Shown here piece after piece: positions 1 to 22,321 of a DNA stretch of 64,000 nucleotides. The stretch is from Cellulomonas endophytica. Lineage in GTDB: Bacteria > Actinomycetota > Actinomycetes > Actinomycetales > Cellulomonadaceae. How positions within the stretch are numbered: position 1 is the first letter of the stretch; every line of letters begins with the position of its first letter. The stretch is taken from assembly GCF_004123805.1 (NCBI RefSeq), contig NZ_RWJX01000002.1, positions 62,001 to 126,000 of the forward strand, read 5' to 3'. The notes beneath the pieces are model-generated. The model worked only from the letters and a program-made list of their open reading frames with translations, was not told the origin of the DNA and did no database searches. A program made the position numbers and the translations under genes.

Positions 1-3000
1 CGCACGCGTGGGGCTGGTCCAACCTCAGCTTCCTGGACCGCCAGGGCCGCACCCACGAGCTGGACGCGGTGGTGGTGACCCGTGCCGGAGTCTTCGTGGT
101 GGAGCTGAAGCACTTCGCCGGCCGGATCACCGGCACGCAGCAGAATTGGCGCGTGACGTCACCGCGCGGCACCACCCGCAGCGAGAAGAACCCGTTCTGG
201 TTGACGGAGCTCAAGGGCAAGCGCCTGAAGTCGCTGCTGCAGGAGAACTCGAAGGTCGACCGCCGCCTGGTGCCCTTCGTCGACGCCCTGGTGGTGCTGC
301 ACGGTGAGCCCAGCGTGGTCGCCCTGCCCGACGACGCGGCGCACCACGTGGTGGCCCTCGACGGCTTCGACGTGACGTGGAAGGACCACGGGCTGCGGGC
401 GTTCCTGCGGCGCACGGCCGACAACAAGCAGCAGCGCGACCAGCACCTGGACCCGCATCACATGCGCGCGGTGGCGGCCATGATCAAGGACGCCGGGTTC
501 GTCCCGACCCCCAAGACGCGGACCGTGGGCCAGTACGTCCTGGACAAGGTGGACCCGCTGGGCAGCGGCCCGACGTGGCAGGACCTGCTGGCGCAGCACC
601 CGATGGTCGCCGGCGAGAAGGTCCGGATTCGCCTGTTCGACGTCCCGCCGGGGGCCAGCGAGCAGCAGCGCCGGGAGATCAGCGACGCCGCGCGCCGCGA
701 GTACCACCTGACGAGCACCATGCTCCACCCGGGGATCGTGCGCCCGCGCGACATCGTCCAGACGGAGTCCGGCGCGGCGCTCCTGTTCCAGCACGACCCC
801 GCCGAGCTCCCGCTCGACGAGTGGCTGACCACCCACGCCGAGCAGCTCGACCTCGACGCCCGCCTCGCCGTCGTCCGTGAGGTCGGCGAGACGCTGGCGT
901 GGGCGCACCAGCAGCGACTCACCCACCGGGCGCTGACGCCGGCGCAGGTCACGGTGCGCGGCGAGCCGGGGCGCGGGGCTCAAGTCGGCATCCGCGACTG
1001 GATGACGGGCGCCCGCGAGGCCGGCACGACGACGACCACGCAGACCTACTTGTCCGCGGGCGTCGACGACGTCGTCGGGCTCGTGGACCAGGCGCGGTAC
1101 GTGTACCTGGCCCCCGAGCAGTGGCACCGCGGAGAGGAGGCCGACGTCCCGCCGATCCCGCTGGACGTGTACGGCTTCGGGGCCGTGGCGCACCTGGTGC
1201 TCACCGGGCGGCCGCCGGCGGCGACCATGGCCGAGGTCATGCGGCTTCGCGAGTCCGGCGCGATGGGCCTCGACCCGGCGGTCGCGGCGCCAACGCTCCC
1301 CGAGTCGTTCGCGTCCGCGGTGCTGCACGCCACCGCGTTCGACGAGGAGCTGCGCACCGCGACGGTCGCCGACGTCCTGGCCGAGCTCGAGAAGGCCTAC
1401 GAGGACGCCACGGCCCCCTCTCCGACGTCGCGGCCGTCGATCGACCCGGCGGACGCCACCAAGGGCGACGTCCTGCACGTCGACGGGCAGGAGCGGTTCG
1501 AGGTGGTCCGCCGCCGCGGGACCGGCGGGACGGGCGTGGCGCTGGAGGTCGTGGACTACGTGCGCGGCCAGGAGGGCCTGGTCCTGAAGGTCGCGCGCGA
1601 CGAGCGGGCCGAGGCCCGGCTGCGCGCCGAGGCCGAGCTCCTGGCCCGGGTGGGCAGCCGCCGGCGCCACGTGGTCGAGCTGCTCGACGGCCCGCTGGAG
1701 GTCAACGGCCGCATCGCCCTGCTCATGTCCGACGCGGGCGACCAGACGCTCGCCGCGTGGCTGGCAGCCGAGGGGCGCCTGTCTCTGGAGTACCTGGAGC
1801 GCTGGGGCACCCAGCTGCTGGACGCCGTGGCGCACCTGGACGGGCTCGGGGTGTTCCACCGCGACGTGAAGCCCGCAAACCTGGCGATCGCCCCCGACCC
1901 GGGGTCGCGCCGGCAGTCCCTCACGCTGTTCGACCTGTCGTTGGCCGCGGAGCCGCTGACCGATAAGGGGTCAGGCACCCGGGACTACATGGACCCGTTC
2001 CTGGCGGACCGGTCGCAGTTCGACGGCGCCGCCGAGCGCTGGTCGGTCGCGGTGACGCTGTTCCAGATGGCCACCAACGTGCTGCCGTGGTGGACCAAGG
2101 GCAACGACCACCCGCTGGACGCGAAGGACACCCTCGCCTTCGCGGAGGCCACGTTCGTCGACGAGCTCGTGGCCCCGCGTCTCGACGCCTTCTTCCGCCA
2201 CGCGCTCGCCTCGCGCCCCGCGGACCGGCCGGGCTCGACCGGCGCCCTCGCCGAGGCGTGGCGGGCCGTCTTCGCCGACCTGGACGTGCAGGAGGACGAG
2301 GACCAGCTGGCGACGCTGGCCGCGGAGGCGGCCGCGGCGTCCCTGGACACCCCACTGGACCGGGCCGGTCTGACCGCCCGTGCGCTGTCGGGCCTGCGCT
2401 CGCTGCGTGCCGGCACGGTGCGAGATCTGCTGGCGCGCCCGACCATGGAGATCAACCAGCTCAAGGGCCTGGGCGAGCGGTACCGCAAGGAGATCCAGGC
2501 CCGCGTCCGCGAGTGGCGCAGCCTGCTCACGGACCCCGAGACCACGCTCGACGGCGACGGCGGGGGCACGCAGTTCGGCACTGGGTCGGTCGAGCACCTG
2601 GTGGGTCGGTTCCTCAAGACCGCCAAGGGCGCTGGGGACACCCCGGTGGCGCGGCTCCTGCTGGGCGCCGACGACCACGACGACGTCCTGTGGCCGACGC
2701 TGCCCGAGGTCGCCGCGCTCACGGGCACGGAGCGGGCCGACGTCACCGCCGAGCTCGCGGTGCGCGTGCAGGGCTGGCGCCGCACCAAGGTCCAGCGCGA
2801 GCTGCGCGACCAGCTGCTGGCGTCGATCGACGCGCTGGAGGGCGTGGCGACGCTCGACGAGGTCGTCGACGCCGTGCTGCGCGAGCACGGGTCGACGCTG
2901 CGCGACGCGCCGCGTCGCCGCCGGGCCGCTGGCCTGGTGCGCGCGCTGGTGGAGCTCGAGTCGTTCGACGACGCCCCGCGCGTAGTGCACCGGCGCAGCC

Positions 3001-4079
3001 GCACGGACGGCTCCGGCTCCTCGGTCCTGCTCGCCGCGGCCGGCGAGGACGACCGCTCTGAGGAGCTGCTGACGCTCGCCGCCGGGCTCGGCACCAAGGC
3101 CGACGTGCTCGCTTCGCAGGGAGCCCCGCTCCCCGACGCCCGCGGCCGCACCGAGCTCGACGCCGTGGCCGGCAGCGATGCGCTGTCCCCGGCGCGACGC
3201 CTGTCCCTGGCTGCCGCGGCGTCGGCCACGGCCGCGCTGTCCGCCTACGCCGAGATCACCCCGCGCGACCTGGACTGGCGGCTGGCCGTCGCGGCGGTGC
3301 TGTCCGGGCAGGGGTTGCGCACCATCGAGGTCGCCGGGATCCGGCGGCGCGTGCGCGGCCGGTTCCCGTGGCTGCCCGAGGACGCGGTGCCCTCCGGAGC
3401 CGAGCTCAGCCAGGCCGTGCAGCAGGTGGCGCCGGCGCTCGTGCGCCACGGCGACACCTTCGAGCTGAGCGAGACGAGCCACCCCAGCACGGCCAGCAGC
3501 ACGCTGACCTCGATCACCGCGACGCGCACGTCCACGGTCCCGCAGGTCCTCGCGGTGCTGCAGCGCTCGGTGGAGACGCGGTCGGGCCTCCTGCTCGCCG
3601 TCACCCCGGAGCGGCACGAGCACGCCTCCCAGCAGCTGGCCGCGGCCGTGCCCGGCCTCGTGGTGCTCGACGTCGCCGATGCGCTGGTCCGCGAGGCGCG
3701 CCGCGTGGCCGACGAGGACGGGGCCGACTGGTCGTTCGTGCTGGGCGCCGACGCCGAGCCCGACGGCTCCCCGCTGCGCAGCCAGCTGCACGAGTTCCTC
3801 GAGGCGGCAGTCGACGCCGTCTGGGAGCAGGTGGTCAGCACCGACGCCCCGCTGCTCCTGGTCCACGCCGGCCCGCTGCTGCGGCACGGCTTCGAGGACC
3901 GCCTGGACCACCTGCTCGACCTGGCGACCGCTCGCCGCGCCGCCCGGTGGGTCTTGGCCCCCCGCCCGTCGTCGAGCGGCGTCCCGCTGCTGGACGGGCA
4001 CCCCGTGCCGGTCGGCGCCGGCCGCTGGACGGATCTGCCCGCCGACCCCCTCCCCACGCTGACTGGAGCACCCTCGTGA
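1..4079 (+). CDS. pglW: PglW, NERD plus double kinase-domain protein of type 2 BREX (5' partial)
   Basis: Serine/threonine kinase component of the Pgl/type 2 BREX phage-defence system. The frame is already open at base 3, so the true start lies outside the window; 1358 residues are visible. A NERD nuclease-like domain comes first, with an Asp at 63-65 and an E-L-K motif at 102-110. A first kinase-like domain follows and looks dead: its catalytic loop reads HRA (924-932) instead of HRD and no DFG is evident. The second kinase domain looks active: VLKVA lysine at 1587-1589, HRDVKPAN from 1857, and FDLS in place of DFG. The C-terminal half has no recognisable motif. The stop overlaps the start of pglX. 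Identity rests on this architecture plus the pglXYZ neighbours. Confidence 0.9.
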   Translation, partial: HAWGWSNLSFLDRQGRTHELDAVVVTRAGVFVVELKHFAGRITGTQQNWRVTSPRGTTRSEKNPFWLTELKGKRLKSLLQENSKVDRRLVPFVDALVVLHGEPSVVALPDDAAHHVVALDGFDVTWKDHGLRAFLRRTADNKQQRDQHLDPHHMRAVAAMIKDAGFVPTPKTRTVGQYVLDKVDPLGSGPTWQDLLAQHPMVAGEKVRIRLFDVPPGASEQQRREISDAARREYHLTSTMLHPGIVRPRDIVQTESGAALLFQHDPAELPLDEWLTTHAEQLDLDARLAVVREVGETLAWAHQQRLTHRALTPAQVTVRGEPGRGAQVGIRDWMTGAREAGTTTTTQTYLSAGVDDVVGLVDQARYVYLAPEQWHRGEEADVPPIPLDVYGFGAVAHLVLTGRPPAATMAEVMRLRESGAMGLDPAVAAPTLPESFASAVLHATAFDEELRTATVADVLAELEKAYEDATAPSPTSRPSIDPADATKGDVLHVDGQERFEVVRRRGTGGTGVALEVVDYVRGQEGLVLKVARDERAEARLRAEAELLARVGSRRRHVVELLDGPLEVNGRIALLMSDAGDQTLAAWLAAEGRLSLEYLERWGTQLLDAVAHLDGLGVFHRDVKPANLAIAPDPGSRRQSLTLFDLSLAAEPLTDKGSGTRDYMDPFLADRSQFDGAAERWSVAVTLFQMATNVLPWWTKGNDHPLDAKDTLAFAEATFVDELVAPRLDAFFRHALASRPADRPGSTGALAEAWRAVFADLDVQEDEDQLATLAAEAAAASLDTPLDRAGLTARALSGLRSLRAGTVRDLLARPTMEINQLKGLGERYRKEIQARVREWRSLLTDPETTLDGDGGGTQFGTGSVEHLVGRFLKTAKGAGDTPVARLLLGADDHDDVLWPTLPEVAALTGTERADVTAELAVRVQGWRRTKVQRELRDQLLASIDALEGVATLDEVVDAVLREHGSTLRDAPRRRRAAGLVRALVELESFDDAPRVVHRRSRTDGSGSSVLLAAAGEDDRSEELLTLAAGLGTKADVLASQGAPLPDARGRTELDAVAGSDALSPARRLSLAAAASATAALSAYAEITPRDLDWRLAVAAVLSGQGLRTIEVAGIRRRVRGRFPWLPEDAVPSGAELSQAVQQVAPALVRHGDTFELSETSHPSTASSTLTSITATRTSTVPQVLAVLQRSVETRSGLLLAVTPERHEHASQQLAAAVPGLVVLDVADALVREARRVADEDGADWSFVLGADAEPDGSPLRSQLHEFLEAAVDAVWEQVVSTDAPLLLVHAGPLLRHGFEDRLDHLLDLATARRAARWVLAPRPSSSGVPLLDGHPVPVGAGRWTDLPADPLPTLTGAPS

Positions 4080-7000
4080 TGGACACCGCCGCACTGCTGA
4101 AGGACCTGCGGGGGCTGCTCAAGACCGTCGTCGCAGACCTCACCGAGCGAGCTGAGGACCCCTCGGTGCCTTGGTCGCACACGCTCAAGGACGAGTTCGA
4201 GTCGGCGATCTCGGCTGACCGCACCGCGGCGCCGTGGATCAGTTGGCGCGACGACCGCCTCGACCAGAGCGCCGTGGCCTGGCTCCTTGCTTGCATCTTC
4301 TTGCGCTACTGCGAGGACAACGGGCTTCTTGCGGGAGCCCGGACGCCATCAGGCATCCCGGGACCCTGGATCGCGGGTGCGACCGAGGGGCCTGCTGGTG
4401 ACCTCGTCCGACGAGCTCAGGAGAACGAGGACGCGTACTTCGAGGACCACCGCGCCGACAACCACGGGGACTGGCTCCGCGACGCCTTCGGTGCGCTTCA
4501 GTCCACACCGGCTGGCGCTGCGCTCCTCGACCGACGCCACAACCCTGTCTGGTCGATCAGCCTCTCCGGGCACGTCGCCAAGGCGCTGATCGACTTCTTC
4601 CGAGAGCGTGAGGTCGACGGCACGCTGAAGCGGTCGTTCGCCACCGACCCCGGCGACACCCGATTCCTCGGTGACGTCTACCAAAACCTCTCCGAGCACG
4701 CAAGGGACACGTACGCCCTGCTCCAGACCCCCGACTTCGTCGAGGAGCTGATCCTCGACCGGACGCTCGACCCGGCACTCGACGAGTTCGGGATCGACGG
4801 CTTCCGGATGATCGACCCGACCTGCGGCTCCGGGCACTTCCTCCTCGGCGCCTTCGGTCGGATCGTCGGCCGCTGGGAGGCCGAGCGGCCCGACCTCGAC
4901 GCGCGTGAGCGTGTGGCCCGAGCGCTGCGCAGCGTCAACGGCGTGGACCTGAACCCCTTCGCCTCGGCGATCGCGAAATTCCGTCTTACGATCGCGGCAC
5001 TGCAGGCATGCGGCGAGCAGTCCCTCGTGGGCGCCCCTCGGTTCGAGATGCGAGTCGCGGTCGGCGACTCCCTCCTCGGTGCACAGGGCCGGCAGGGCGA
5101 GCTCAACCTCCTCAGCACGCACGACGCGTTCACGTACGAGACCGAGGACCTCGGCGACTACGCGAGCATCCTCGAGCAGGGGCAGTACCACGTCGTCGTG
5201 GGGAACCCTCCGTACATCACGGTGAAGGACAAGGCCCTCAACACGGCCTACCGCCTGGCCTACCCGACCTGTCACCGCCAGTACGCGCTCACGGTGCCCT
5301 TCATGGAGCTCTTCTTCCGCCTGGCGGTGCCCGCGGGACCGCTGAACGGGGCTGGTTACGTCGGTCAGATCACCTCGAACTCCTTCATGAAGCGCGAGTT
5401 CGGCGTCAAGGTGATCGAGGGCCTCCTCTCGGGGCGCGACCTGGGCACCCGGGTCGACCTCGTCGACGTCATCGACACCTCCGGCGCCTACATCCCGGGC
5501 CATGGGACACCGACGGTCATCCTGGTGGGCCGGCGCCGAACTCCGACGAACGAACCGGTCAACACGATCCTGGGAGTCCGCGGAGAACCCGGACAGCCTC
5601 AGGACCCCCGCCAAGGGCTGGTCTGGAGTGAGATCCGCGACCACCTCGACGATGGTTCTTTCAACGGCAGCTACGTGACGGTCCGCCCCACCGATCGTGC
5701 AACGCTGTCCAAGCATCCGTGGTCGCTGGCTGGTGGCATCTCTCAAGCGGTCGTCGAGCAAATCGAGGGCGCGGCTTTTCGAACCCTCGGTGATGCAATC
5801 GAGCGTAATATAGGTGGTGCGATCCGGGCGGGGGCGGACGAGGCCTACATGCGTCCGCGCCTCGTCGCGCGGGAGGCGCACGTCGCAGCGCGCTTTCGAC
5901 CATTCGTGATCGGCGAAGACGTCCGAGACTACAGCTGGAGCGCATCCGACCTGATCGCCTTTCCGTACGACGACGACCTCCGCGCTGACGGCGCGCTCGA
6001 CACGGTTCTCTGGCCGTGGCGAACGCCCCTGGCTCGACGTACGACCTTCAAAGGGTCGATGGCCGACGCCGGGCTGCGCTGGTCCGCGTACATGCAGTTC
6101 ACGAAATGGGCGATCACAGCCCCGATGTCCATCACGTTTGCGGAAGTGGCGACGCACAACCACTTCGTGCTGGATCGGGGCGGGAAGGTTTTCAAGCAGA
6201 CGGCACCGGTGATCAAGTTGCCAGAAGGGGCCAGCGAGGACGATCACCTCGCGCTCCTCGCGGTGCTAAATAGCAGCACCGCGTGCTTTTGGCTTAAGCA
6301 GGTCAGCCACAACAAGGGCAGCACCGTCGACACCAAGGGCGCGAGACAGACTCTCGCGCCGTGGGAGGACTTCTACCAATTCGGCGGTACGAAGCTTCAG
6401 AAATTTCCACTCCCGCAAACGTGCCAGTTGGAACGTGGTCGGACTCTCGACTCGCTCGCGCAGCGCCTCGCAGCGAATCACCCGTCCGCCGTCCTACGGG
6501 GGCACCTTCGTGACCTGCCCGCAACCCTCAGCGCCTCGAAAGCCTCGTCCGCCACGCTTCGTGCTGCGATGGCATTCCAACAAGAAGAACTTGACTGGGC
6601 CATCTACCGCGAGTTCGGGTTGGTCGACGAGCCGCTCACCTACGAGTCGTCAGACGTCGACGAGCTCGAGCTCGGACAGCGTGCCTTCGAGGTCGTGCTC
6701 GCGCGGTCCGGCGAGGACACCGCCTGGTTCGACCGTCATGGGTCGACGCCCACCACCGAGCTCCCCGCCTCGTGGCCCGCCGGCTACCGGGCGCTCGTCG
6801 AGCGGCGGCTGGAGGTCATCGCGTCGAATCCGCAGATCGCGCTGCTGGAGCGGCCCGAGTACAAGCGGCGGTGGGCCTCGGCGACGTGGGAGGAGCTCGA
6901 GCGCCGGGCCCTGACCGAGGCCCTCCTCGACAAGCTCGATGAGCCGTCCCTGTGGGGCTCAGGCCTGCAGCCGCAGGTCCGGACAGTCGCCGAGCTCGCC

Positions 7001-7675
7001 GACCTGCTGCGCGCCGACGCGTCGGTCGCCGCGATGGTGCGGCGACTCGTCGGGCGGGAGGACGCCGACGTCACGGCGACGCTGCAGCAGGTCGCGCTCG
7101 GCGAGGCCGTGCCGTACCTGGCGTCGCTGCGCTACAAGCCCACGGGTATCGAGAAGTACCGCGCCTGGCAGGAGGTCTGGGACCTGCAGCGCCTGGAGGA
7201 CCGGATCGACGCCGGCGCGCCCGGCACCCGCCCCGAGGTCCCCGCGCCGCCCAAGTACAAGCCCGCGGACTTCTTGCGCAACGAGCACTGGCGCGCCCGC
7301 GGCAAGTTAGACGTGCCCAAGGAGCGCTTCGTGCTCTACCCGGGCGTCTCGCGCCAGGGCGACCCCACCGCCGTCCTCGGCTGGGCCGGGTGGGACCACG
7401 CGCAGCAGGGGCTCGCGCTGGCCTCGTTGGTCAGCGAGGTCCGCGCCAGCAGCGTCGTCGGCGACGTCGTGCCGCTGCTGGCCGGCATCACCGAGCTCGA
7501 GCCGTGGGTCGAGCAGTGGCACGCCGAGCTGCTCCCTGAGTACGGGTTCAGCCCGGCCGAGTCGCTGCGGCAGTTCCTGGACCAGCAGTTCGACGAGGAG
7601 CAGACCACGCGGGCCGACGTCACGGCCTGGACCCCGCCGGCCCCCACGCGGGGACGCAAGCGCAAGGAGACCTGA
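4079..7675 (+). CDS. pglX: PglX, N6-adenine DNA methyltransferase of type 2 BREX
   Basis: Class I adenine methyltransferase of 1198 residues, of the size expected for BREX PglX; in known systems it marks host DNA at a non-palindromic site and is required for phage exclusion. The SAM-binding motif DPTCGSGHF is at residues 246-254 and the catalytic NPPY at 376-379. The target-recognition region, about residues 540-850, is visibly richer in A and T than the flanks. The ATG overlaps the pglW stop by one base; a GTG three bases upstream (4076) sits better after the GGAG at 4065-4068 and could be the real start. The longer reading frame reaching back to 3368 is antisense to nothing but lies inside pglW, so it is not coding. 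No long homopolymer tract is present. Confidence 0.93.
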   Translation: MDTAALLKDLRGLLKTVVADLTERAEDPSVPWSHTLKDEFESAISADRTAAPWISWRDDRLDQSAVAWLLACIFLRYCEDNGLLAGARTPSGIPGPWIAGATEGPAGDLVRRAQENEDAYFEDHRADNHGDWLRDAFGALQSTPAGAALLDRRHNPVWSISLSGHVAKALIDFFREREVDGTLKRSFATDPGDTRFLGDVYQNLSEHARDTYALLQTPDFVEELILDRTLDPALDEFGIDGFRMIDPTCGSGHFLLGAFGRIVGRWEAERPDLDARERVARALRSVNGVDLNPFASAIAKFRLTIAALQACGEQSLVGAPRFEMRVAVGDSLLGAQGRQGELNLLSTHDAFTYETEDLGDYASILEQGQYHVVVGNPPYITVKDKALNTAYRLAYPTCHRQYALTVPFMELFFRLAVPAGPLNGAGYVGQITSNSFMKREFGVKVIEGLLSGRDLGTRVDLVDVIDTSGAYIPGHGTPTVILVGRRRTPTNEPVNTILGVRGEPGQPQDPRQGLVWSEIRDHLDDGSFNGSYVTVRPTDRATLSKHPWSLAGGISQAVVEQIEGAAFRTLGDAIERNIGGAIRAGADEAYMRPRLVAREAHVAARFRPFVIGEDVRDYSWSASDLIAFPYDDDLRADGALDTVLWPWRTPLARRTTFKGSMADAGLRWSAYMQFTKWAITAPMSITFAEVATHNHFVLDRGGKVFKQTAPVIKLPEGASEDDHLALLAVLNSSTACFWLKQVSHNKGSTVDTKGARQTLAPWEDFYQFGGTKLQKFPLPQTCQLERGRTLDSLAQRLAANHPSAVLRGHLRDLPATLSASKASSATLRAAMAFQQEELDWAIYREFGLVDEPLTYESSDVDELELGQRAFEVVLARSGEDTAWFDRHGSTPTTELPASWPAGYRALVERRLEVIASNPQIALLERPEYKRRWASATWEELERRALTEALLDKLDEPSLWGSGLQPQVRTVAELADLLRADASVAAMVRRLVGREDADVTATLQQVALGEAVPYLASLRYKPTGIEKYRAWQEVWDLQRLEDRIDAGAPGTRPEVPAPPKYKPADFLRNEHWRARGKLDVPKERFVLYPGVSRQGDPTAVLGWAGWDHAQQGLALASLVSEVRASSVVGDVVPLLAGITELEPWVEQWHAELLPEYGFSPAESLRQFLDQQFDEEQTTRADVTAWTPPAPTRGRKRKET

Positions 7676-14192: not shown

Positions 14193-15529
14193 GCACCATC
14201 AGCAACCGCCGCCGCCAGGATGTCGTGAACGCCCTGCGTCGCGGGACCGTGCCGCAGCAGGGCCTCGACGTGCTGGCCGTGGGGCTCGACCGCTTCCAGG
14301 AGGCGATCGACCTCGAGCTCGACACCGCCGCCAAGGGCGGCGCCGTCTTCAAGGCCGTCCGCGGCGAGTACGGCGCGGGCAAGACCTTCTTCACCCGCTG
14401 GGTCGTCGAACGTGCGAAGCGCCTCGGCTTCGCGGCGTCCGAGATCCAGGTCAGCGAGACCGAGACGCCGCTGCACAAGCTCGAGACCGTCTACCGGCGG
14501 CTCAGCGAGAACCTCAGCACCGGCGAGGTCGCGCAGGGCGCCATGCGCGACGTCGTCGACGGGTGGTTCCACGTCCTCACGGAGGACGCCGTCGCCGCCG
14601 GCACCACGCGCGACGACGCCGTCGGGCTCGAGGCGGCGACGGACCACCTCGTCGAGGCGCGGCTGCGCAAGGTCGCCGAGACCGCACCGACCTTCGCCAT
14701 CGCGATGCGCGGCTACCGGCAAGCCCAGGCGGCTGGCGACGTGCCCCAGGCCGAGGGCCTGCTCGCCTGGCTCGGGGGGCAGCCCAACGTGGCCGCGTCG
14801 GTGCGTCGGCGAGCCGGGCTGCGCTCCGAGCTCGACCACTTCGGCGCCCTCGGCTTCCTGCAGGGCCTGCTGACAGTGCTGCGGGACTCGGACTACAAGG
14901 GCTTGGTGCTGGTGCTCGACGAGGTCGAGACGCTGCAGCGCGTTCGCTCCGACGTGCGCGAGAAGTCGCTGAACGCGCTGCGCCAGCTCATCGACGAGGT
15001 CGACTCCGGGCGCTTCCCCGGCCTGTACCTGGTGGTGACCGGGACGCCGGCGTTCTTCGACGGGCAGCAGGGCGTCCAGCGGCTCCCGCCCCTGGCTCAA
15101 CGACTGGCCACCGACTTCACCACCGACGTCAGGTGGGACAACCCTCGGGCCGTGCAGATCCGGCTCCCCGGTTTCACCCAGGAGTCGCTGCGCGAGCTCG
15201 GCCTGCGGGTGCGCGACATCTACGCCGCCGGCTCCACAGCCCCCGAGCGGATCACGGCCGTGGTCGACGACGCCTACGTCGAGGAGCTGGCCGCTGCCGT
15301 CGCCGGCGAGCTCGGCGGCCGCGCCGGCGTCGCCCCGCGGGTCTACCTCAAGAAGCTCGTCGGCGACGTCCTGGACCGGGTCGACCAGTTCCCCGACTTC
15401 GACCCGCACCGGCACTACGCGCTGACCATCCGGGACGACGAGCTCACGGCGACCGAGGCGGAGGCGGCTCGGCGGGGCGAGCACCCACGTCGGGCTACGA
15501 GCGTGGACGACATCGAGCTCGACGTCTGA
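14189..15529 (+). CDS. brxD: BrxD, BREX ATP-binding protein
   Basis: ATPase of 446 residues of the BREX ATP-binding family (DUF2791). Walker A is GEYGAGKT with Lys 65, Walker B is VLVLDEVE with Asp 244, and a sensor-like VVTGTPAFF follows the second strand pair. The ATG overlaps the pglZ stop (ATGA at 14189-14192), and a GGAGGGG site at 14181-14187 precedes it. This is the last gene of the overlapping pglW-X-Y-Z-brxD run. In type 2 BREX it normally sits beside brxHI, but here two other genes separate them. It probably acts as an AAA-type loader for the helicase; that is inferred from the family pairing. Confidence 0.9.
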   Translation: MSTISNRRRQDVVNALRRGTVPQQGLDVLAVGLDRFQEAIDLELDTAAKGGAVFKAVRGEYGAGKTFFTRWVVERAKRLGFAASEIQVSETETPLHKLETVYRRLSENLSTGEVAQGAMRDVVDGWFHVLTEDAVAAGTTRDDAVGLEAATDHLVEARLRKVAETAPTFAIAMRGYRQAQAAGDVPQAEGLLAWLGGQPNVAASVRRRAGLRSELDHFGALGFLQGLLTVLRDSDYKGLVLVLDEVETLQRVRSDVREKSLNALRQLIDEVDSGRFPGLYLVVTGTPAFFDGQQGVQRLPPLAQRLATDFTTDVRWDNPRAVQIRLPGFTQESLRELGLRVRDIYAAGSTAPERITAVVDDAYVEELAAAVAGELGGRAGVAPRVYLKKLVGDVLDRVDQFPDFDPHRHYALTIRDDELTATEAEAARRGEHPRRATSVDDIELDV

Positions 15530-15569
15530 CCGGCCGGACAAGATCGCCCGAGTCGGCGGCGAGAGGTAC

Positions 15570-15575
15570 TAGCGT
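15570..15575 (+). promoter_or_regulatory. Likely -10 box for the HNH gene
   Basis: TAGCGT lies seven bases before an in-frame GTG (15583), the layout of an actinobacterial leaderless promoter. No convincing -35 was seen. It suggests that the HNH gene has its own transcript rather than depending only on read-through from brxD, which ends 40 bases earlier. Confidence 0.45.
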
Positions 15576-15636
15576 CTTCCAGGTGCAGCAACGTGCCCGT
15601 CGCGGCGAGGGGGATCGTGAGCGGGAGCGCCCGCTC

Positions 15637-16392
15637 ATGGCAGCCATATCAGACTCCTTAGACCTCGAGCACTTCGACTGCGCCGCTGGGTCGACGGTCG
15701 AGCGTCCCTTCCTCGAGGCAATCGCAACGGCACTCGGGCTCGACGGCAGCAGGCAGTCGTACAGCTCGAAGGAACTGCTGCTGGCGGCGCTGCTCCGGCG
15801 TGTGGGCACCGAGGATCCCGAGCCCTTCCTCTCCTCGGGCGGGACGGTGACCGACAAGGCACTGGCGCAGATCCTCGAGGGCATCGTGCGCAGCGGCCTC
15901 GCGACGACTGACCTCGTCCGCGGCGCAGCGGCGGCGCGGATCGCACTCGCCCGCTTCGACAACGGATCTGGCGAGGAGGTCTTCGACGCGCTCGAGCTGT
16001 CCGACGAGCGCCGACGGGCACTCCGGCTCGTCACGGTCCGCGACGGCGCATCCCGTTTCCGCTCGGCGATGATGAACGCCTACGGCGGGCGTTGTGCCGT
16101 GAGCGGATGCGACGTCCCCGAGGCACTCGAGGCCGCCCACATCCGCCCGTACTCCGGCCCCAGGAGCAACGCCGTGCCCAACGGGATCCTGCTGCGCGCC
16201 GACCTGCACAGGCTCTGGGACACCGGGCTCCTGGCGGTCGCGGAGTCGGGCTACCAGGTGCTCCTCGCCGAGCATCTGGTAAGCACCGACTACTCGCTGT
16301 TCGGGGGCCAGCGCATCACGCTGCCGGCGAAGCCGGAGCAGGTCCCGTCGTCTGCTGCGCTCGAGCAGCAGAGGCTGTGGGCCGGGCTGTAG
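15637..16392 (+). CDS. HNH endonuclease with an unrecognised N-terminal domain
   Basis: Predicted HNH nuclease of 251 residues from the ATG, which has GGGAG nine to ten bases upstream; an in-frame GTG at 15583 would add 18 basic residues and is supported by a leaderless -10. The C-terminal third is a clear HNH fold: CAVSGC, then AAHIRPY with H168, N182 in NGILLR, and H191 in DLHRLWD, the McrA/restriction-type pattern. Only two Cys (CAVSGC) are seen, so a full structural zinc site is uncertain. The first 150 residues match nothing I recognise. It lies between brxD and the convergent m5C methyltransferase and overlaps the latter by 77 bases. It may be the restriction partner of that methylase or a BREX accessory nuclease; this is inference. 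Confidence 0.85.
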   Translation: MAAISDSLDLEHFDCAAGSTVERPFLEAIATALGLDGSRQSYSSKELLLAALLRRVGTEDPEPFLSSGGTVTDKALAQILEGIVRSGLATTDLVRGAAAARIALARFDNGSGEEVFDALELSDERRRALRLVTVRDGASRFRSAMMNAYGGRCAVSGCDVPEALEAAHIRPYSGPRSNAVPNGILLRADLHRLWDTGLLAVAESGYQVLLAEHLVSTDYSLFGGQRITLPAKPEQVPSSAALEQQRLWAGL

Positions 16393-17974
16393 CCGTAGCC
16401 GACCTGTCGATCAGGTAGCTGCCCGCTGCCGCGGGCAGATGGAGCCGCGGCGCTTCGTTCCCGCCGCCACGCGGGGGCCTCCAACCCTGGCCGTCAGCGA
16501 GACGCACGGCATCGACAAGCCCAGGCAGCGTGCGTCGGACCTCCTCCGCGTGGTCGTCGACGAATCGGCACATCGAGTAGTGCACTGCACCCGCAGACAC
16601 CCCGTTGCCCATCTGCTTGTAGGCGGCTGCGTCCGTCTTACCAGCAAAGGTGAAGCTGTCGTCGAAACCTTGGAGCCGGGCGACCTCGCGTGGGGTCAGA
16701 CGGCGACGCCGCCGGCCGACGATGGAGGTCTGCGTGATCGCGACGAGGGCCGGGACGTAGGTGGGAAGCTTGGCTCTGATGCCCGACGGCCGCAGCTGCA
16801 ACAGGCAGTCCCAAAGGCTCTCTGCGTCCTGTGCCTGCCACTCCAGCTTGCGTCGCGACTCCGGGAATTCGTCGAACCGTGCCATGACGGGAAGTTCTTT
16901 CCACTGCTCGACCAGGCTCTCGTTGTCCTTGTAGAACAGCATGTTCTTCCGGACAAAGTTCTGCTTCCACGGGGGCATAGCCACTAACACCGCCAGGCGA
17001 TCGGGCGGCAGGTCGTCCTTGCGCACGAAGTACTCCGTCCAGATCGGGTGACCTGGCAGCGCGACACCCGCCCCTCGCATGATCTGCACGAAGGCGTCCC
17101 ACGCATCGATCCATTCGGTCTCTGGACCGGTGACCGCATATCGCTGGAGGTCGGAGACTTCTTCGTCCTGCTGCAGGATCGGCCGGCCACCGAGCCACGG
17201 GATCGGGGTCGTCGCAAGGTCCCAGACAGGCGCGTCCTTGGCCATCTCGGCACGACGCAACGTGGGTCGGATGTCCTTGGCGAGCGCCCTGCGGTCGACG
17301 CCCTTGTAGATGGCCATGATGAAGACACGATCACGCACTTGAGGCGTTCCGCCGTGGTGCGCTGGGATCAGGTGCGGGCTCACGACCATGGGCTCACGAG
17401 ACACCTCGTAGCCCAGCTCCTCGAGTGCGTCGATGATCGTCTGCCACGTCGTCAAGAGGTGCCGCGGCCCGGCGAGGTTGCGGACATTCTCCAGGAAGAC
17501 GATCTTCGGTCGCCGCTCCTGCAGGATGCGGATGATGTTGAAGAACAGCGTGCCGCGCGTCTTGTCGAGCACACCCTGCTGAGACCCCGACTTGGAGAAG
17601 GCCTGGCACGGGAATCCCGCCGCGAGCACGTCGTGCGGCGGGACCCTCATCGTTCCGTCGCCGGCGTAGGTCGGATCCTCACGCTGAGGAGCGTCGTCGT
17701 TGATGTCGCCTCGTATGGCCGGGTTCGTCTCGCCGACCATAGGCTGCGCCGACGCGTCGTACGGGTTGACGTGCTCGCCCCAGTTGGCCCGGTAGACGTC
17801 GCGCGCGTCCTGGTCGATCTCGGAGACGTAGACGCACTGCCCACCAAGGGCACTGAGCGCCGCGTGAAATCCACCGATGCCGGCGAAGAGGTCGACGAAT
17901 GTGAAAGCCGGCTGGGGAGCAGCCTCCGTCGCATCGACGCCGACGATCGTGCCGTCGGCCTCCCACCCGTCCAT
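16316..17974 (-). CDS. C5-cytosine DNA methyltransferase (Dcm family)
   Basis: m5C methyltransferase of 552 residues. All core motifs are visible: I, DLFAGIGG (28-35); IV, FPCQAF with catalytic Cys 123; VI, ENVRN (162-166); VIII, QVRDR (212-216); IX, RLTPREVARLQGF; and X, QMGNGVS. The target-recognition stretch lies between VIII and IX. The ATG at 17974 is chosen because GGGAGG sits six bases ahead; the frame stays open to 18109 but those extra residues lack a family match. The last 25 codons run into the 3' end of the HNH gene on the other strand. It faces away from brxHI, and a Vsr gene follows brxHI, so it probably protects DNA as part of an inserted restriction-modification set. Confidence 0.95.
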   Translation of the reverse strand: MDGWEADGTIVGVDATEAAPQPAFTFVDLFAGIGGFHAALSALGGQCVYVSEIDQDARDVYRANWGEHVNPYDASAQPMVGETNPAIRGDINDDAPQREDPTYAGDGTMRVPPHDVLAAGFPCQAFSKSGSQQGVLDKTRGTLFFNIIRILQERRPKIVFLENVRNLAGPRHLLTTWQTIIDALEELGYEVSREPMVVSPHLIPAHHGGTPQVRDRVFIMAIYKGVDRRALAKDIRPTLRRAEMAKDAPVWDLATTPIPWLGGRPILQQDEEVSDLQRYAVTGPETEWIDAWDAFVQIMRGAGVALPGHPIWTEYFVRKDDLPPDRLAVLVAMPPWKQNFVRKNMLFYKDNESLVEQWKELPVMARFDEFPESRRKLEWQAQDAESLWDCLLQLRPSGIRAKLPTYVPALVAITQTSIVGRRRRRLTPREVARLQGFDDSFTFAGKTDAAAYKQMGNGVSAGAVHYSMCRFVDDHAEEVRRTLPGLVDAVRLADGQGWRPPRGGGNEAPRLHLPAAAGSYLIDRSATATARPTASAARAQQTTGPAPASPAA

Positions 17975-18082
17975 CCAACGCCTCCCACCGTCGAGCCAGG
18001 TCGCGCTCGCGGACCCACGCGTCTCACCTCGAGCCGTGCAGCTTACCCGTGCGGGCGCGGCGGGTCGAGCAGCCAGGTGCGC

Positions 18083-18101
18083 CTTGCCGACGGTGGGCAA
18101 G
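18083..18101. promoter_or_regulatory. Inverted repeat in the methyltransferase/brxHI divergent spacer
   Basis: CTTGCC (18083-18088) and GGCAAG (18096-18101) form a perfect six-base dyad with a seven-base centre. The palindrome ACACGTGT follows at 18106-18113. They lie in the 218-base region between two divergent start codons, where operators or promoters are expected. No regulator gene is adjacent, so the binding partner is unknown. Confidence 0.4.
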
Positions 18102-18169
18102 TAGAACACGTGTACAGGTGGTCCGGGCGGACGCTATGCGCGCGTCGGGCCGACCTGAGCGGCTGCCAC

Positions 18170-18188
18170 CGATCGTGGTGCACGATCG
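18170..18188. promoter_or_regulatory. Perfect inverted repeat just before brxHI
   Basis: CGATCGTG (18170-18177), a GTG spacer, then CACGATCG (18181-18188): eight-base arms, no mismatch. It ends four bases before the GTG at 18193. It may be an operator or a hairpin that hides the ribosome site. Its position argues for the 18193 start, because the longer starts would place it inside the gene. Confidence 0.45.
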
Positions 18189-18192
18189 TCCC

Positions 18193-20304
18193 GTGAGCGG
18201 AACCGGGGCCGACCGTCAGCTCGCGCCCGCGATCGAGTACCACGTGGTCAACTCGCTGGGGTGGAACCAGCTCCGGCCCTTGCAGCACCGCGCCGTCGCA
18301 CCCCTCGCCGGGGGGATGGACAGCGTGCTCGTCGCGCCGACGGCGGGAGGCAAGACAGAAGCCGCGCTGTTCCCCCTCCTCACGCGCATGGCTGACGAGG
18401 GTTGGACCGGCACCTCCCTCCTCTACCTGACTCCGCTGAAGGCGCTGCTGAACAACCTCCTCCCCCGCCTGCAGGGCTACACCGCCTGGCTCGGGCGGAC
18501 CGCCGCGGTGTGGCACGGCGATGTCGCTGACAGCGCCCGCAGGCGGGTCCTCGTCGAACGGCCCGACGTGCTGCTGACGACGCCCGAGTCGCTCGAGTCG
18601 ATGCTCGTGTCCCGTCGCGTCGACCATCGCCGCGCCTTCGCCGACGTCCGCGCCGTCGTGGTGGACGAGCTCCATGCCTTCGCCGGAGCCGATCGCGGTT
18701 GGCACATGCTCGCGGTCCTCGAACGCGTGTCTCGGCTCGCAGGCCGCGCCGTCCAGCGGGTCGGGCTCTCGGCGACGGTGGGCAACCCCACCGAGATGCT
18801 CGCGTGGCTCCAGGGCTCTAACCGTGGAAGGCCGTCGCAGGTGGTCGAGGTGCTTCCGGACGAGGAGGCGGCGCAGCCGGACATCGTGCTCGACCACGTC
18901 GGGTCCGTCGAGAATGCAGCAACGGTCGTCGCGCAGCTGCACCGTGGGGAGAAGCGGCTCGCCTTCACGGAGTCGCGGCGCCAGGCCGAGGAGCTCGCCT
19001 TCGAGCTGCGCGAACGCGGCGTCACCACCTACGTCTCGCACTCGTCCTTGTCGGCAGATGAACGACGGACGAGCGAGCGGGCGTTCGCCGAGGGGACCGA
19101 CTGCGTGGTCGTCGCGACGTCGACGCTCGAGCTCGGCATCGACATCGGTGACCTCGACCGGGTCGTCCAGGTGGACGCGCCCCGTACGGTCGCTTCCCTC
19201 CTGCAACGGCTCGGGCGCACCGGCCGGCGCGCCGGCACTGTGCGGAACCTGCTGGTCCTCGCCACCGAGGACGACGCGTTCCTCCGAGCTGCCGGCCTGC
19301 TCCACCTGCGAGCACAGGGCTACGTCGAGCCCGTCGTCCCACCACCCTCGCCGCACCACCTCGCCGCGCAGCAGCTGCTGGCGCTGACGCTGCAGGAGGG
19401 TCGGATCAGCCCCACTCGCTGGCGCGACTGGTGGGGCGAGCTGGGCGTGATGCAGGCCGGGGACGACGTGCTGACCTTCCTCTGCGAGTCGGGCTTCCTT
19501 CAGCAGGACTCGGGCCTGCTGCACCTGGGTGAGCGTGCCGAGAAAGAGTTCGGCCGCCGGTACTTCATGGACCTGCTCGCGTCCTTCACGGCCGCCTTCG
19601 AGCTCGCCGTGACCGACGGACGCCGAGAGATCGGCAGCCTGTCGCCGCTGTCGGTCCGAGGGCTGCGGCCCGGGCAGCCGCTGGTCGTGCTGCTCGGCGG
19701 TCGCGGGTGGCGCGTCGAGCACGTCGACTGGGAGCGTCACACCGTGACCGTGCGCGAGGAGAGGGACAAGGGCAAGGTCCGCTGGCAGTCCACACCAACA
19801 CCCGAATCCTTCGCCCTCTGCCAGGCTCAGCGCGAGATCCTCCTCGGCACCGACCCGGACGTCACGCTGTCGCGCCGTGCTCGCGACCGCCTGGGCATCG
19901 TGCGGCAACGCCTGGCCACCACCGTCGACGGCGGCGGTCTGGTGCTGGAGGAGCGGCGCGACACGCAACGGCTGTGGACCTGGGCGGGGGCGCACGCCAA
20001 CGTGACGCTGCTGGCGGCCCTGGGGATCGACGACGGCGCTTCAACCCGGAACGCGTACGTCGACCTGCCGCACCACGTCGGACCTGCAGCCATCCGTGCA
20101 GCGGCAGAAGCATCGACGGCCCTGCCGCTCGTGACCCCTGAGATGGTCGACGGCCTCAAGTTCTCCGCCGCCTTGCCGGCGAGAACAGCACGCGACGTGG
20201 TGGCGCGGCGGCTCGTGGACATCCCCGGCATGGTCGCGACCGCGACCGCGCCCCTCGTCCGACGTCGCCTTCAGGGTGGAGCCGACGACTCCGTGACCGG
20301 CTGA
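18193..20304 (+). CDS. brxHI: BrxHI, Lhr-like superfamily 2 helicase of type 2 BREX
   Basis: ATP-dependent helicase, 703 residues from the GTG at 18193; an ATG at 18136 and a GTG at 18178 are alternatives without a better ribosome site. Motifs: I, PTAGGKTE (49-56); II, DELH (158-161); III, SAT (193-195); V, TSTLELGIDIGD; and VI, QRLGRTGR (338-345). This is the Lhr-type pattern that defines BrxHI in type 2 BREX. It is transcribed separately from pglW-brxD, from a spacer with two dyads. The Vsr gene starts 20 bases after its stop and is probably co-transcribed. Confidence 0.85.
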   Translation: MSGTGADRQLAPAIEYHVVNSLGWNQLRPLQHRAVAPLAGGMDSVLVAPTAGGKTEAALFPLLTRMADEGWTGTSLLYLTPLKALLNNLLPRLQGYTAWLGRTAAVWHGDVADSARRRVLVERPDVLLTTPESLESMLVSRRVDHRRAFADVRAVVVDELHAFAGADRGWHMLAVLERVSRLAGRAVQRVGLSATVGNPTEMLAWLQGSNRGRPSQVVEVLPDEEAAQPDIVLDHVGSVENAATVVAQLHRGEKRLAFTESRRQAEELAFELRERGVTTYVSHSSLSADERRTSERAFAEGTDCVVVATSTLELGIDIGDLDRVVQVDAPRTVASLLQRLGRTGRRAGTVRNLLVLATEDDAFLRAAGLLHLRAQGYVEPVVPPPSPHHLAAQQLLALTLQEGRISPTRWRDWWGELGVMQAGDDVLTFLCESGFLQQDSGLLHLGERAEKEFGRRYFMDLLASFTAAFELAVTDGRREIGSLSPLSVRGLRPGQPLVVLLGGRGWRVEHVDWERHTVTVREERDKGKVRWQSTPTPESFALCQAQREILLGTDPDVTLSRRARDRLGIVRQRLATTVDGGGLVLEERRDTQRLWTWAGAHANVTLLAALGIDDGASTRNAYVDLPHHVGPAAIRAAAEASTALPLVTPEMVDGLKFSAALPARTARDVVARRLVDIPGMVATATAPLVRRRLQGGADDSVTG

Positions 20305-20324
20305 CCGCGGGCGGAGCGCCGACC

Positions 20325-20822
20325 GTGCCGACGTTCCACGTCCCTGCGCACCCCGGTTCGAGCGACCCAGCCCTGTCTCGGCGGATGTCCACCCTCGCCC
20401 GCCGGGACAACCCTCGAGAGCTCGCCTTGCGGCGCGCGCTTCACGCACAAGGGTTCCGGTACCGGGTCACCGTACGAGTCCCGGGTCTGCCTCGCCGCAC
20501 CATCGACGTCGCGTTCCCACGGGCAAGGGTCGCCGTCTTCGTCGACGGGTGCTTCTGGCACGGCTGCTCGGAGCACAGCCATGCACCACGCTCGAACAGC
20601 TCCTGGTGGGCCCAGAAGCTGGCCGCCAACCGGGCTCGCGACGCCGACACCACGCGCCACCTCCAGGAGCTGGGTTGGACCGTCCTCCGCATCTGGGAGC
20701 ACGTGCCGTTGGACGACGCCGTTGCGACCGTCGTGGCTGCAGTCGCTGCAGCTCGAGAGAAGCAGGCTGGGACCGGTCGTCGTCGCGCTCGGGACACGAA
20801 AGTTCTAGATGGTTCTGGGTGA
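20325..20822 (+). CDS. Vsr-type very short patch repair endonuclease
   Basis: Nuclease of 165 residues that nicks at T:G mismatches arising from deamination of 5-methylcytosine. The family signature is clear: SRRMSTLARRDNP near the N-terminus, the catalytic-type Asp in TIDVAFPR, then VFVDGCFWHGC, a SN-x3-W segment and the closing GWTVLRIWEH. The GTG start gives about 20 residues before the conserved region; an ATG at 20385 would cut into it. It lies 20 bases after brxHI. A Vsr gene is the usual companion of an m5C methylase, which fits the methyltransferase at 16316-17974 on the other side of the helicase. Confidence 0.92.
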   Translation: MPTFHVPAHPGSSDPALSRRMSTLARRDNPRELALRRALHAQGFRYRVTVRVPGLPRRTIDVAFPRARVAVFVDGCFWHGCSEHSHAPRSNSSWWAQKLAANRARDADTTRHLQELGWTVLRIWEHVPLDDAVATVVAAVAAAREKQAGTGRRRARDTKVLDGSG

Positions 20823-20864
20823 CCGCCGCTTGCGTCGCTCGGGGCACCTATCGCCCGTACATGC

Positions 20865-20887
20865 ATCGGGTCGCCCGCTGACCCGAT
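20865..20887 (+). terminator. Hairpin after the Vsr gene
   Basis: ATCGGGTC (20865-20872) and GACCCGAT (20880-20887) form a perfect eight-base stem with a seven-base loop, 43 bases after the Vsr stop. Only a weak T-rich tail follows, so it may be a terminator or a regulatory dyad for the next gene. Confidence 0.5.
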
Positions 20888-20936
20888 CGAGTGGTTTCGG
20901 CGAAGGGCGCACCACACGGCTCTCGGACCGATCGAT

Positions 20937-20947
20937 GTTCCGGGAAC
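20937..20947. promoter_or_regulatory. Palindrome upstream of the coiled-coil gene
   Basis: GTTCCGGGAAC, five-base perfect arms around one G, 22 bases before the GTG of the next gene. It could be an operator. It does not match the actinobacterial SOS box. Confidence 0.3.
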
Positions 20948-20968
20948 ACGAACGTAGGGGAGGGCGGC

Positions 20969-22321
20969 GTGGCGGCTTCACGCAAGGCGACCGTGCTCGT
21001 GCACAGGGGCGCACTGCTCGTCGACGGGCCGTTGCGGGACCGACCTGTCCGTCGGATGCCCGACGGCACGGGCGGCGTCGTCTATGGAGGGCTCGTCTAC
21101 CCACTCCGACCGGGCGATGTCATCAACCTGGACGACCCAGTTACCGACAAGCACTCGTGCCCGACGTTCGTGCTCATGGACCAGGTGCTGACCTACCGTC
21201 AGCCCGACGTCGCGCGTGGCCACCTCGCAGTGGAGCGGTGGGCGATCGAGTCGAACAAGTACGGCAACTACGTCGTCTTCGACGCCGACGAGGAGACCGC
21301 CGAGGCAGTCATCGAGCGCCTCGACGCTGCAGGGCTCGGCGTACGCCGGTGGGACAGGAGCCACCGCCCTGCCGCCGACGGGTACTTCTACGACTGGTTC
21401 GCCCGGCTCGGCGCGCACACCGATGCAGACGCCGTTCCCGCTCTCGTCGGCGCAGCGCTGGCAGCGCCCAACCCAGCGCACCCAGGGGGCGCGCACGAAG
21501 TGACACCCGAGGTGCTGGCCACTTTCCGTGCAGAACTAGCCGAGGTCGCCAAGCAGGTTGCCGAGCTGGAACGAGCTGTTGCCGCGGCGGAGGCGGAAGC
21601 CTATGCCTTGACTCTCGAGAACGATGAACTTGCCAGCAAGCTGCGTCGCGCACGGAAGGAGCGGACGAGCTACAAGCGCGAATATCTCACGCTGCTGGAC
21701 GCGGTGACCGACCCGCAACACCCCACCGGCGCTGCGTCCCCCGATGACGGCGAGAACCGCACGCTCAAGGAGCTGTTGGCGGACGCGGAACAGGCCGAGG
21801 CCGCGAGCGCGGCAGAGAAGACGAGGCTGCGACGCGAGGTGGAGAGACTCCGACGAGAACTCGATGGTGCTACCGAGACGCTCGAGACCGCCCAATTGGA
21901 ACGCGAGGCTGCGATGGTTGCGGCCACGAGTCGTTCGAGCACCCAGGCCGCCTCGATCGACAACCTTCTCAGCCGCATGTTCCGTCGCGTCACGCTTCAT
22001 GACACCGCAGTGGACGTCCTCACCGACCCCCGCCGCTTCAACGACCTGTCAGCGGTGACGGCTGCCCTCGCACGCCTCGACAGACGCGAGAACATCGCCA
22101 AGAAGTGCCGCGGCTACTCCGACATCTGGGAGGTCGACGACCTGCCCACAGGGCTGAAGGGTTCGGCAGCACGTATGGGCCGCATCTACTACAAGCGCCA
22201 CACCGACACAGACCGACTCCTCGTCTTCCTGCACCGGAAAGAGGATGACAAGGAGCAGGAGCAGTTCCTCAAGTACATCGACAGCCAGCCGTCCGAGCTC
22301 GCTCACTTCCACGATCGTTGA
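20969..22321 (+). CDS. Unrecognised coiled-coil protein at the BREX island edge
   Basis: I do not recognise this 450-residue protein. The GTG at 20969 is chosen for the GGGGAGGG site just before it. Residues 1-170 look like a compact alpha/beta domain with many aromatic residues (GNYVVFDAD, DGYFYDWFARLG). About residues 190-330 are a long Glu/Ala/Arg-rich coiled coil. The last 100 residues hold GLKGS, RIYYKRH and DRLLVFLHRKED followed by an acidic helix, a layout loosely like RelE/ParE-type or similar small beta-alpha domains; that likeness is weak. It is not the size or make-up of any BREX core gene. GC is a little lower than in the chromosome beyond 22543. It may be a defence effector or regulator by position only. 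Confidence 0.7.
   Translation: MAASRKATVLVHRGALLVDGPLRDRPVRRMPDGTGGVVYGGLVYPLRPGDVINLDDPVTDKHSCPTFVLMDQVLTYRQPDVARGHLAVERWAIESNKYGNYVVFDADEETAEAVIERLDAAGLGVRRWDRSHRPAADGYFYDWFARLGAHTDADAVPALVGAALAAPNPAHPGGAHEVTPEVLATFRAELAEVAKQVAELERAVAAAEAEAYALTLENDELASKLRRARKERTSYKREYLTLLDAVTDPQHPTGAASPDDGENRTLKELLADAEQAEAASAAEKTRLRREVERLRRELDGATETLETAQLEREAAMVAATSRSSTQAASIDNLLSRMFRRVTLHDTAVDVLTDPRRFNDLSAVTAALARLDRRENIAKKCRGYSDIWEVDDLPTGLKGSAARMGRIYYKRHTDTDRLLVFLHRKEDDKEQEQFLKYIDSQPSELAHFHDR

What the first reader, a model, noticed from the sequence alone, without database searches (positions are those of the whole stretch)
1..22321. Type 2 BREX island carrying an inserted cytosine-methylation set
pglW-X-Y-Z-brxD run in overlapping order and brxHI is present, but an HNH nuclease and a convergent m5C methyltransferase separate brxD from brxHI, and a Vsr gene plus an unknown coiled-coil gene follow. 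Established: pglW, pglX, pglY, pglZ, brxD and brxHI define type 2 BREX. Inference: adenine-based BREX exclusion and a cytosine-based restriction system act as layers of one island.
Basis: partly seen in the sequence, partly recalled or inferred. Interest (0 to 1): 0.75.

Follow-up and report, generated by a model that had tools for sequence, protein, structure and literature searches.

The report
Restriction-modification module interleaved with BREX
In this bacterium a type 2 BREX phage-defence operon is split by, and interleaved with, a second gene set that elsewhere stands alone, likely an independent restriction-modification system that would cut phage DNA lacking its own cytosine mark; the arrangement was seen in no other locus examined, so the two are probably neighbours rather than parts of one machine.

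Summary
In detail: a complete type 2 BREX operon (pglW-X-Y-Z-brxD, brxHI) with an HNH gene and a convergent m5C methylase between brxD and brxHI, and vsr plus a coiled-coil gene after brxHI. New: HNH, m5C methylase and Vsr recur as a stand-alone set. Of ten other genomes found with a full-length HNH relative, ten have the methylase nearby, nine Vsr, none BREX beside it. The only m5C methylase and only Vsr found in the window's genome flank brxHI. Conversely, of 55 other loci with a brxD-brxHI pair, 54 have the genes at most 80 bp apart, and none of 57 carries m5C or Vsr. BrxD and BrxHI fall in the same four-member clade, so brxHI is native and HNH-m5C probably a later insertion; brxHI now sits where, in three relatives, m5C meets vsr. 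Most likely: two independent DNA-marking defences side by side, brxHI predicted to be transcribed from the methylase side with vsr. The coiled-coil gene belongs to a different, often Hsp70-linked family. Functional layering is untested, and nothing in the comparison supports it.

The parts
1..4079 (+). pglW (NERD nuclease and kinase protein); frame starts TTG 88 bases before the window
   Evidence: NF033442 1048 bits over cut-off; Pfam NERD and kinase; start read; HRD motif present
4076..7675 (+). pglX, BREX-2 adenine methyltransferase
   Evidence: NF033451 1497 bits; NPPY motif present
7675..11412 (+). pglY (BrxC-like ATPase)
   Evidence: PADLOC BrxC/PglY 1290 bits; NF047891 933 bits, under its cut-off
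11409..14192 (+). pglZ, BREX-2 type, with C-terminal wHTH
   Evidence: NF033446 685 bits; C-terminal domain aligned
14189..15529 (+). brxD
   Evidence: NF033438 644 bits; overlaps pglZ by 4 bases
15637..16392 (+). HNH nuclease, likely the restriction enzyme of the module
   Evidence: HNH_2; full-length family with H191 invariant and H168, N182 nearly so in 34 sequences; m5C methylase nearby in 10 of 10 other loci
16316..17974 (-). m5C DNA methyltransferase, convergent with HNH
   Evidence: PF00145; motifs FAGIGG, PCQAFS, ENV, QVRDR, GNGV present; only PF00145 match in the genome
17975..18192 (.). divergent spacer between m5C methylase and brxHI, predicted to hold both promoters
   Evidence: position only; promoter not tested
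18193..20304 (+). brxHI helicase (start uncertain, 18049-18193)
   Evidence: PADLOC BrxHI 918 bits; same four-row clade as brxD in trees of 56 rows; helicase motifs present
20325..20822 (+). vsr endonuclease gene, 20 bp after brxHI
   Evidence: TIGR00632 over cut-off; PDB 1cw0 E 4e-15; only PF03852 match in the genome
20969..22321 (+). coiled-coil protein with conserved N- and C-terminal domains; separate cargo
   Evidence: 11 proteins including itself; 14 loci in named genomes, eight of them with an Hsp70-like gene directly upstream (Pfam HSP70 checked in L119 and L122)

Best explanation
A type 2 BREX operon is interleaved here with a three-gene set (HNH nuclease, m5C DNA methyltransferase, Vsr endonuclease) that elsewhere stands alone and is likely a mobile type II restriction-modification module working independently of BREX. 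Shown: gene content, order, intact frames, recurrence of the trio without BREX, and the shared descent of brxD and brxHI. Inferred: the methylase would put 5-methylcytosine on a sequence in the host; the HNH nuclease would cut the same sequence when unmethylated; Vsr would repair T:G mismatches that arise when 5-methylcytosine deaminates; BREX would separately mark and exclude through PglX adenine methylation. Inferred history: the HNH-m5C pair entered between brxD and brxHI, whose genes overlap or nearly touch in relatives; with vsr behind it, brxHI now fills the m5C/vsr junction. Inferred consequence: brxHI, cut off from the pglW-brxD transcript by two genes of which one is on the opposite strand, would be transcribed from the spacer it shares with the methylase, together with vsr.
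For: Full-length HNH relatives in ten other genomes (four from 396 genomes of the order at E up to 1e-20; six from 200 of the family at E up to 1e-45): m5C methylase nearby in 10 of 10 (nine within 0.7 kb, L176 at 6.3 kb), Vsr in 9 of 10 (not L159), BREX genes in 0 of 10 in the fetched 12-39 kb, apart from one kinase-domain match to PglW in L157 at E 4e-6. HNH and m5C are tail to tail in 7 of the 10, as here. HNH and m5C distances correlate across 11 loci (r 0.58, permutation p 0.002). The sole PF00145 and sole PF03852 match of the genome flank brxHI. In L156, L157 and L175 m5C and vsr are divergent neighbours 240-280 bp apart by alignment ends; here brxHI lies between them. brxD-brxHI gap at most 80 bp in 54 of 55 other loci. 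The window's BrxD and BrxHI both fall in a clade with L058, L061 and L105 (100/99 support in both trees), where the gap is at most 80 bp. In G001 both systems exist about 128 kb apart. GC of HNH, m5C, vsr and the coiled-coil gene is 0.66-0.70 against 0.76 for the rest of the window; pglX at 0.68 and brxHI at 0.71 are also low.
Against: Vsr distances do not follow those of m5C or HNH (r 0.13 and 0.17, p 0.16 and 0.12, 10 loci), so Vsr may have come separately. The HNH-m5C correlation may in part reflect the relatedness of the hosts. The closest solved folds to the HNH model are modification-dependent nucleases (VcaM4I E 1.3e-3, TagI E 4e-3), which would fit a type IV enzyme, though only weakly. 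Inserting the trio as one block would give brxD-HNH-m5C-vsr-brxHI, so the order seen needs at least two events. The arrangement was seen once, so nothing shows that it is kept by selection. No mobility gene was shown beside the module and the methylase had no match among plasmids at 1e-60, so 'mobile' rests on its scattered places. No recognition sequence, activity or transcript is known.
Confidence: 0.72

Rival explanations
1. The interleaving is functional: brxHI has been rewired into the methylase-vsr transcription unit, so BrxHI dose follows the m5C module and the helicase serves both defences as one composite system.
For: brxHI is the only gene between m5C and vsr, and vsr follows brxHI by 20 bp on the same strand.
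Against: Seen in one genome; 0 of 57 other loci carry m5C or Vsr; 10 of 10 stand-alone modules have no BrxHI match in the fetched surroundings.
Confidence: 0.12
2. The HNH protein is a modification-dependent (type IV) auxiliary nuclease recruited to back up BREX, and the methylase and Vsr are its unrelated neighbours.
For: [quoted passage not shown] weak fold likeness to VcaM4I and TagI.
Against: The full-length HNH family is found with the m5C methylase in 10 of 10 other loci and co-diverges with it; Pfam shows no SRA or other reader domain.
Confidence: 0.1
3. A defence island grown by chance: the cytosine genes are recent passengers without selected function here, or the order is an assembly error.
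For: Unique arrangement; draft assembly of 174 contigs.
Against: Catalytic motifs and frames are intact; the locus lies inside one 149 kb contig, not at an end.
Confidence: 0.06

Closest known systems
Type 2 BREX (Pgl of Streptomyces coelicolor and relatives)
   Same: All six type 2 genes, pglW to brxD in one run with overlapping ends
   Different: brxD and brxHI, described as a tightly linked dyad (PMC12839542, section 22 read), are 2.66 kb apart, with a methylase on the opposite strand between them
Type II m5C restriction-modification with a V (Vsr) gene
   Same: m5C methylase, HNH nuclease and Vsr together; the prefix V for Vsr endonucleases is part of type II nomenclature (PMC4081073, passages)
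   Different: Recognition sequence unknown; a BREX gene stands between methylase and vsr
BREX loci with auxiliary nucleases (HNH, GmrSD, PD-(D/E)XK)
   Same: Extra nuclease inside the core locus (PMC12839542, section 35 read)
   Different: Here a whole modification-restriction-repair set, not a lone nuclease; that paper's main text holds 'vsr' 0 times (its supplements were not seen)
Druantia and DISARM class 2 (m5C methylase subunits)
   Same: Best PADLOC match of the methylase is DruM2 (557 bits); DrmMII 146 bits
   Different: No DruE, DrmA, DrmB or DrmC gene of its own seen in the locus; DruE models match only the BrxHI protein, at up to 52 bits

Membership tests
Type 2 BREX | pglW, pglX, pglY/brxC, pglZ of type 2, brxD, brxHI in one locus | tested here: met
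   PglY under the NCBIfam cut-off but 1290 bits in PADLOC
Type 2 BREX | brxD and brxHI as adjacent dyad (usual, not strictly defining) | tested here: not met
   gap 2663 bp; at most 80 bp in 54 of 55 other loci, 1125 bp in L063
Type 2 BREX | adenine methylation of host sites and phage exclusion | not testable with these tools
   needs methylome and plaque assays
Type II m5C restriction-modification | intact m5C methylase with its motifs | tested here: met
   (motif names recalled)
Type II m5C restriction-modification | nuclease gene constantly linked to the methylase | tested here: met
   10 of 10 other full-length HNH loci; co-divergence p 0.002
Type II m5C restriction-modification | nuclease cuts the methylase's sequence when unmethylated | not testable with these tools
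   no recognition sequence known
Vsr endonuclease | family score over cut-off and conserved core | tested here: met
Type IV HNH restriction enzyme | modified-base reader domain (SRA, sulfur-binding) next to HNH | tested here: not met
   Pfam finds HNH_2 only; PT-DNA_restrict 43 bits against a cut-off of 180; fold likeness weak
DISARM class 2 | drmA, drmB, drmC with m5C methylase | tested here: not met
   no DrmA, DrmB or DrmC among the PADLOC matches listed for ten proteins (for PglW, PglX, the methylase and BrxHI only the best 25 are listed, so weaker matches are unseen)
Druantia | druE helicase beside druM | tested here: not met
   DruE models match only the BrxHI protein, at up to 52 bits against 918 for BrxHI

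The most novel reading that the evidence does not exclude
A composite defence in which the BREX helicase has changed hands: brxHI sits in the m5C-vsr junction of a restriction-modification module, is transcribed with vsr from the methylase's divergent promoter, and couples adenine-based exclusion to cytosine-based restriction, for instance by running BrxHI from HNH or Vsr nicks.
Probability: 0.1. Interest if true: 0.72.

Novelty: new variant of a known kind. Interest (0 to 1): 0.42.

Why it matters
It shows how two DNA-marking defences can become physically interleaved, with a core BREX gene moved into a foreign module's junction. It defines an HNH-m5C-Vsr module as a unit, which gives a likely restriction partner and repair partner for methylases that could be taken for orphans, and it separates that unit from BREX. 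It also offers a natural test of whether BrxHI must be transcribed with brxD. If the two prove independent, it is an ordinary case of defence-island stacking.

Tried and rejected
Considered and rejected: that the extra genes are a usual part of type 2 BREX (0 of 57 other loci with m5C or Vsr); that brxHI belongs to the cytosine module rather than to BREX (its clade matches that of BrxD); DISARM or Druantia membership; that the coiled-coil gene belongs to the cytosine module (no tblastn match in the ten stand-alone modules or the 57 BREX loci; its 14 loci in named genomes hold no m5C, Vsr or BREX match, apart from a PglX-like stretch in L130 and an HNH match in L127). Its fold model is uncertain between domains (pTM 0.32) and no structural match is significant (best: PfiAT toxin-antitoxin complex, E 0.035; RelE 0.29, HigB2 0.79); I draw no function from that.

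Led nowhere: palindrome avoidance in 116 kb of the own contig. GTAC, GGCC and CGCG are rarer than expected here and not clearly so in 78 kb of two same-genus genomes, but counts are on both strands, the sample is small and CTAG is lowest in any case, so no recognition site is proposed. m5C protein against plasmids: no match at 1e-60. One search searched with two of my queries (coiled-coil, upstream protein) in a wrong frame; redone. Literature: no paper held all of BREX, Vsr, HNH and cytosine methyltransferase, and none the terms; the listings (titles and abstract starts; up to 15 shown each) showed no report of this arrangement; the library lacks most subscription journals.

Rows dropped: of 59 other PglZ places over the cut-off (11, 48), four on short contigs (G401, G403, G625, G730) were not fetched whole. 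In one search I left out L109 and L113-L118 (repeats or extensions of counted loci) and L112 (no PglZ gene); one search had shown no m5C or Vsr there. L110 and L111, counted among the 57, carry brxD-brxHI without a full pglZ. L097 and L107 lack the brxD-brxHI pair. Only 42 of the 56 loci with the pair (window included) have 5 kb or more after brxHI, so absence of downstream cargo is less well covered than absence inside the gap. Of 23 genomes with an HNH match, I followed the five full-length ones (window included); the other 18 match only the later part and their surroundings were not examined.

Full report
What is there. The window lies inside one 149 kb contig of a 4.2 Mb, 99.6% complete draft genome, a high-GC actinobacterium, probably of the Cellulomonas group judging by the names of HNH homologues. 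A complete type 2 BREX operon fills 1-15529, with the pglW frame starting 88 bases before the window. pglW, X, Y, Z and brxD overlap by one to four bases with the starts used here. Then come an HNH gene (15637-16392, +), an m5C methyltransferase gene that runs against it (16316-17974, -), brxHI (about 18193-20304, +), vsr (20325-20822, +) and a coiled-coil gene (20969-22321, +). A transaldolase-like gene on the other strand (22543-24549) follows. Motifs of PglX, PglW, BrxD, BrxHI and the methylase are present; motif names are recalled.

Is the cytosine set a unit? I built a family alignment of the HNH protein (34 sequences) and searched 396 genomes of the order, 394 of the class and 200 of the family (E limits 1e-20, 1e-45 and 1e-45; the sets overlap). 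Full-length relatives turned up in ten other genomes. I fetched the surroundings of all ten and searched them with the window's proteins. The m5C methylase is near in 10 of 10 (nine within 0.7 kb; 6.3 kb in L176), Vsr in 9 of 10 (not found in L159), and no BREX gene in any apart from a kinase-domain match in L157. In seven of the ten HNH and m5C are convergent, as in the window. Distances of HNH and m5C correlate (r 0.58, p 0.002, 11 loci; host relatedness may add to this), those of Vsr with either do not (10 loci). So HNH and m5C are a pair, and Vsr a frequent but exchangeable third member. In the window's genome only one m5C methylase and only one Vsr were found, and both flank brxHI.

Is it a usual part of type 2 BREX? 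I collected BREX-2 loci by PglZ from the order (12 of 396 genomes over the cut-off, window included) and the class (48 of 394), fetched 55 of 59 other PglZ places plus two loci with only the PglZ C-terminal domain, and measured them. Fifty-five of the 57 have a brxD-brxHI pair; in 54 the genes overlap or lie at most 80 bp apart. The exceptions are L063 (1125 bp) and the window (2663 bp). No locus of the 57 holds m5C or Vsr by tblastn (E 1e-4) or by profiles built from the trio (E 1e-3); HNH-domain matches occur in L106 (later half only, 44%) and L054 (29%, weak). G001 has both BREX-2 and the trio, about 128 kb apart. BREX loci are known to take in extra nucleases (PMC12839542; sections 18, 22 and 35 read and passages seen), so the insertion belongs to a known kind; that paper's main text does not mention Vsr.

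Is brxHI native? In trees of 56 BrxD and 56 BrxHI proteins, the window's BrxD and BrxHI fall in the same clade with L058, L061 and L105 (100/99 in both). The BrxHI branch is long (0.83), and the order inside the clade is unresolved. In those three relatives brxD and brxHI are at most 80 bp apart. The simplest reading is that HNH and m5C entered a formerly closed brxD-brxHI junction.

The interleaving. In L156, L157 and L175 m5C and vsr are divergent neighbours 240-280 bp apart by alignment ends. In the window brxHI fills just that junction. Leaving brxHI out of account gives the L156/L175 order; leaving HNH-m5C out gives the usual BREX order. One block insertion does not give this; either brxHI moved, or HNH-m5C and vsr arrived apart. 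The second is a little favoured because Vsr does not co-diverge with the pair and because one locus shows the pair without Vsr (L159).

How it most likely works (inferred). Two marking defences side by side: PglX adenine marks with BREX exclusion, and m5C marks with HNH cutting, with Vsr limiting the mutational cost of m5C. Work in Caulobacter shows that a Vsr-like protein can make loss of a solitary m5C methylase costly (PMC12907096, abstract and passages), so vsr may also hold the module in place. Because a gene on the opposite strand now lies between brxD and brxHI, brxHI would need its own promoter, most simply in the 218 bp that it shares with the methylase, and would be read together with vsr. 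No promoter or transcript was tested.

The coiled-coil gene. Its family has conserved N-terminal and C-terminal domains around a variable coiled coil. Eleven proteins including itself were found in a database of 5.8 billion, where only the 7992 best candidates were scored, and 14 loci in named genomes. In 8 of 14 it is the last gene behind an Hsp70-like gene, with one unknown gene shared by the same eight and another by seven of them (HSP70 checked in L119 and L122). In others it sits beside a type IV-like helicase-nuclease (L128) or, by eye, type I restriction genes (L132). It is probably defence-associated cargo of its own.

Verdict. A real, unusual arrangement of known parts. The restriction-modification module is well supported, its independence from BREX is favoured, functional coupling is open and improbable.

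Noticed in passing
L053:10265-11065 (about 850 bp upstream of pglW, outside the window): A 266-aa protein whose last 110 or so residues match the C-terminal wHTH of type 2 PglZ, fused to another N-terminal domain. The same wHTH ends a 353-aa protein right after brxHI in L063 and a kinase-like protein right before brxD-brxHI in L110 and L111; two short fragments occur in G464 and G519. It may be a docking module for BrxD-BrxHI.
   Followed up: partly
L110:6239-10931 and L111:6323-11228: A three-gene unit of a kinase-like protein (by eye) with PglZ-type wHTH, brxD and brxHI, with no pglX, pglY or full pglZ match nearby; possibly a reduced BREX-related system.
   Followed up: partly
L119:5886-11335 and matching places in L121-L126 and L129: Cassette of up to two unknown genes, an Hsp70-like gene and the coiled-coil family in actinobacteria, possibly an undescribed defence cassette.
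   Followed up: partly
L066-L070, between pglZ and brxD: Inserts of 2.8-9.4 kb; by eye L066 and L070 encode GmrSD-like proteins and L070 a reverse transcriptase (names recalled; L068 and L069 not looked at).
   Followed up: no
L063:8019-9127: The only other insert between brxD and brxHI among the loci measured: two small genes, by eye an antitoxin-like and a PIN-like protein.
   Followed up: no
[not shown]
   Followed up: no
L170:15435-16577, L172:15994-17133, L175:8114-9370: A similar-looking 379-418 aa protein of unknown kind beside the HNH-m5C-Vsr module in three genomes, seen by eye.
   Followed up: no
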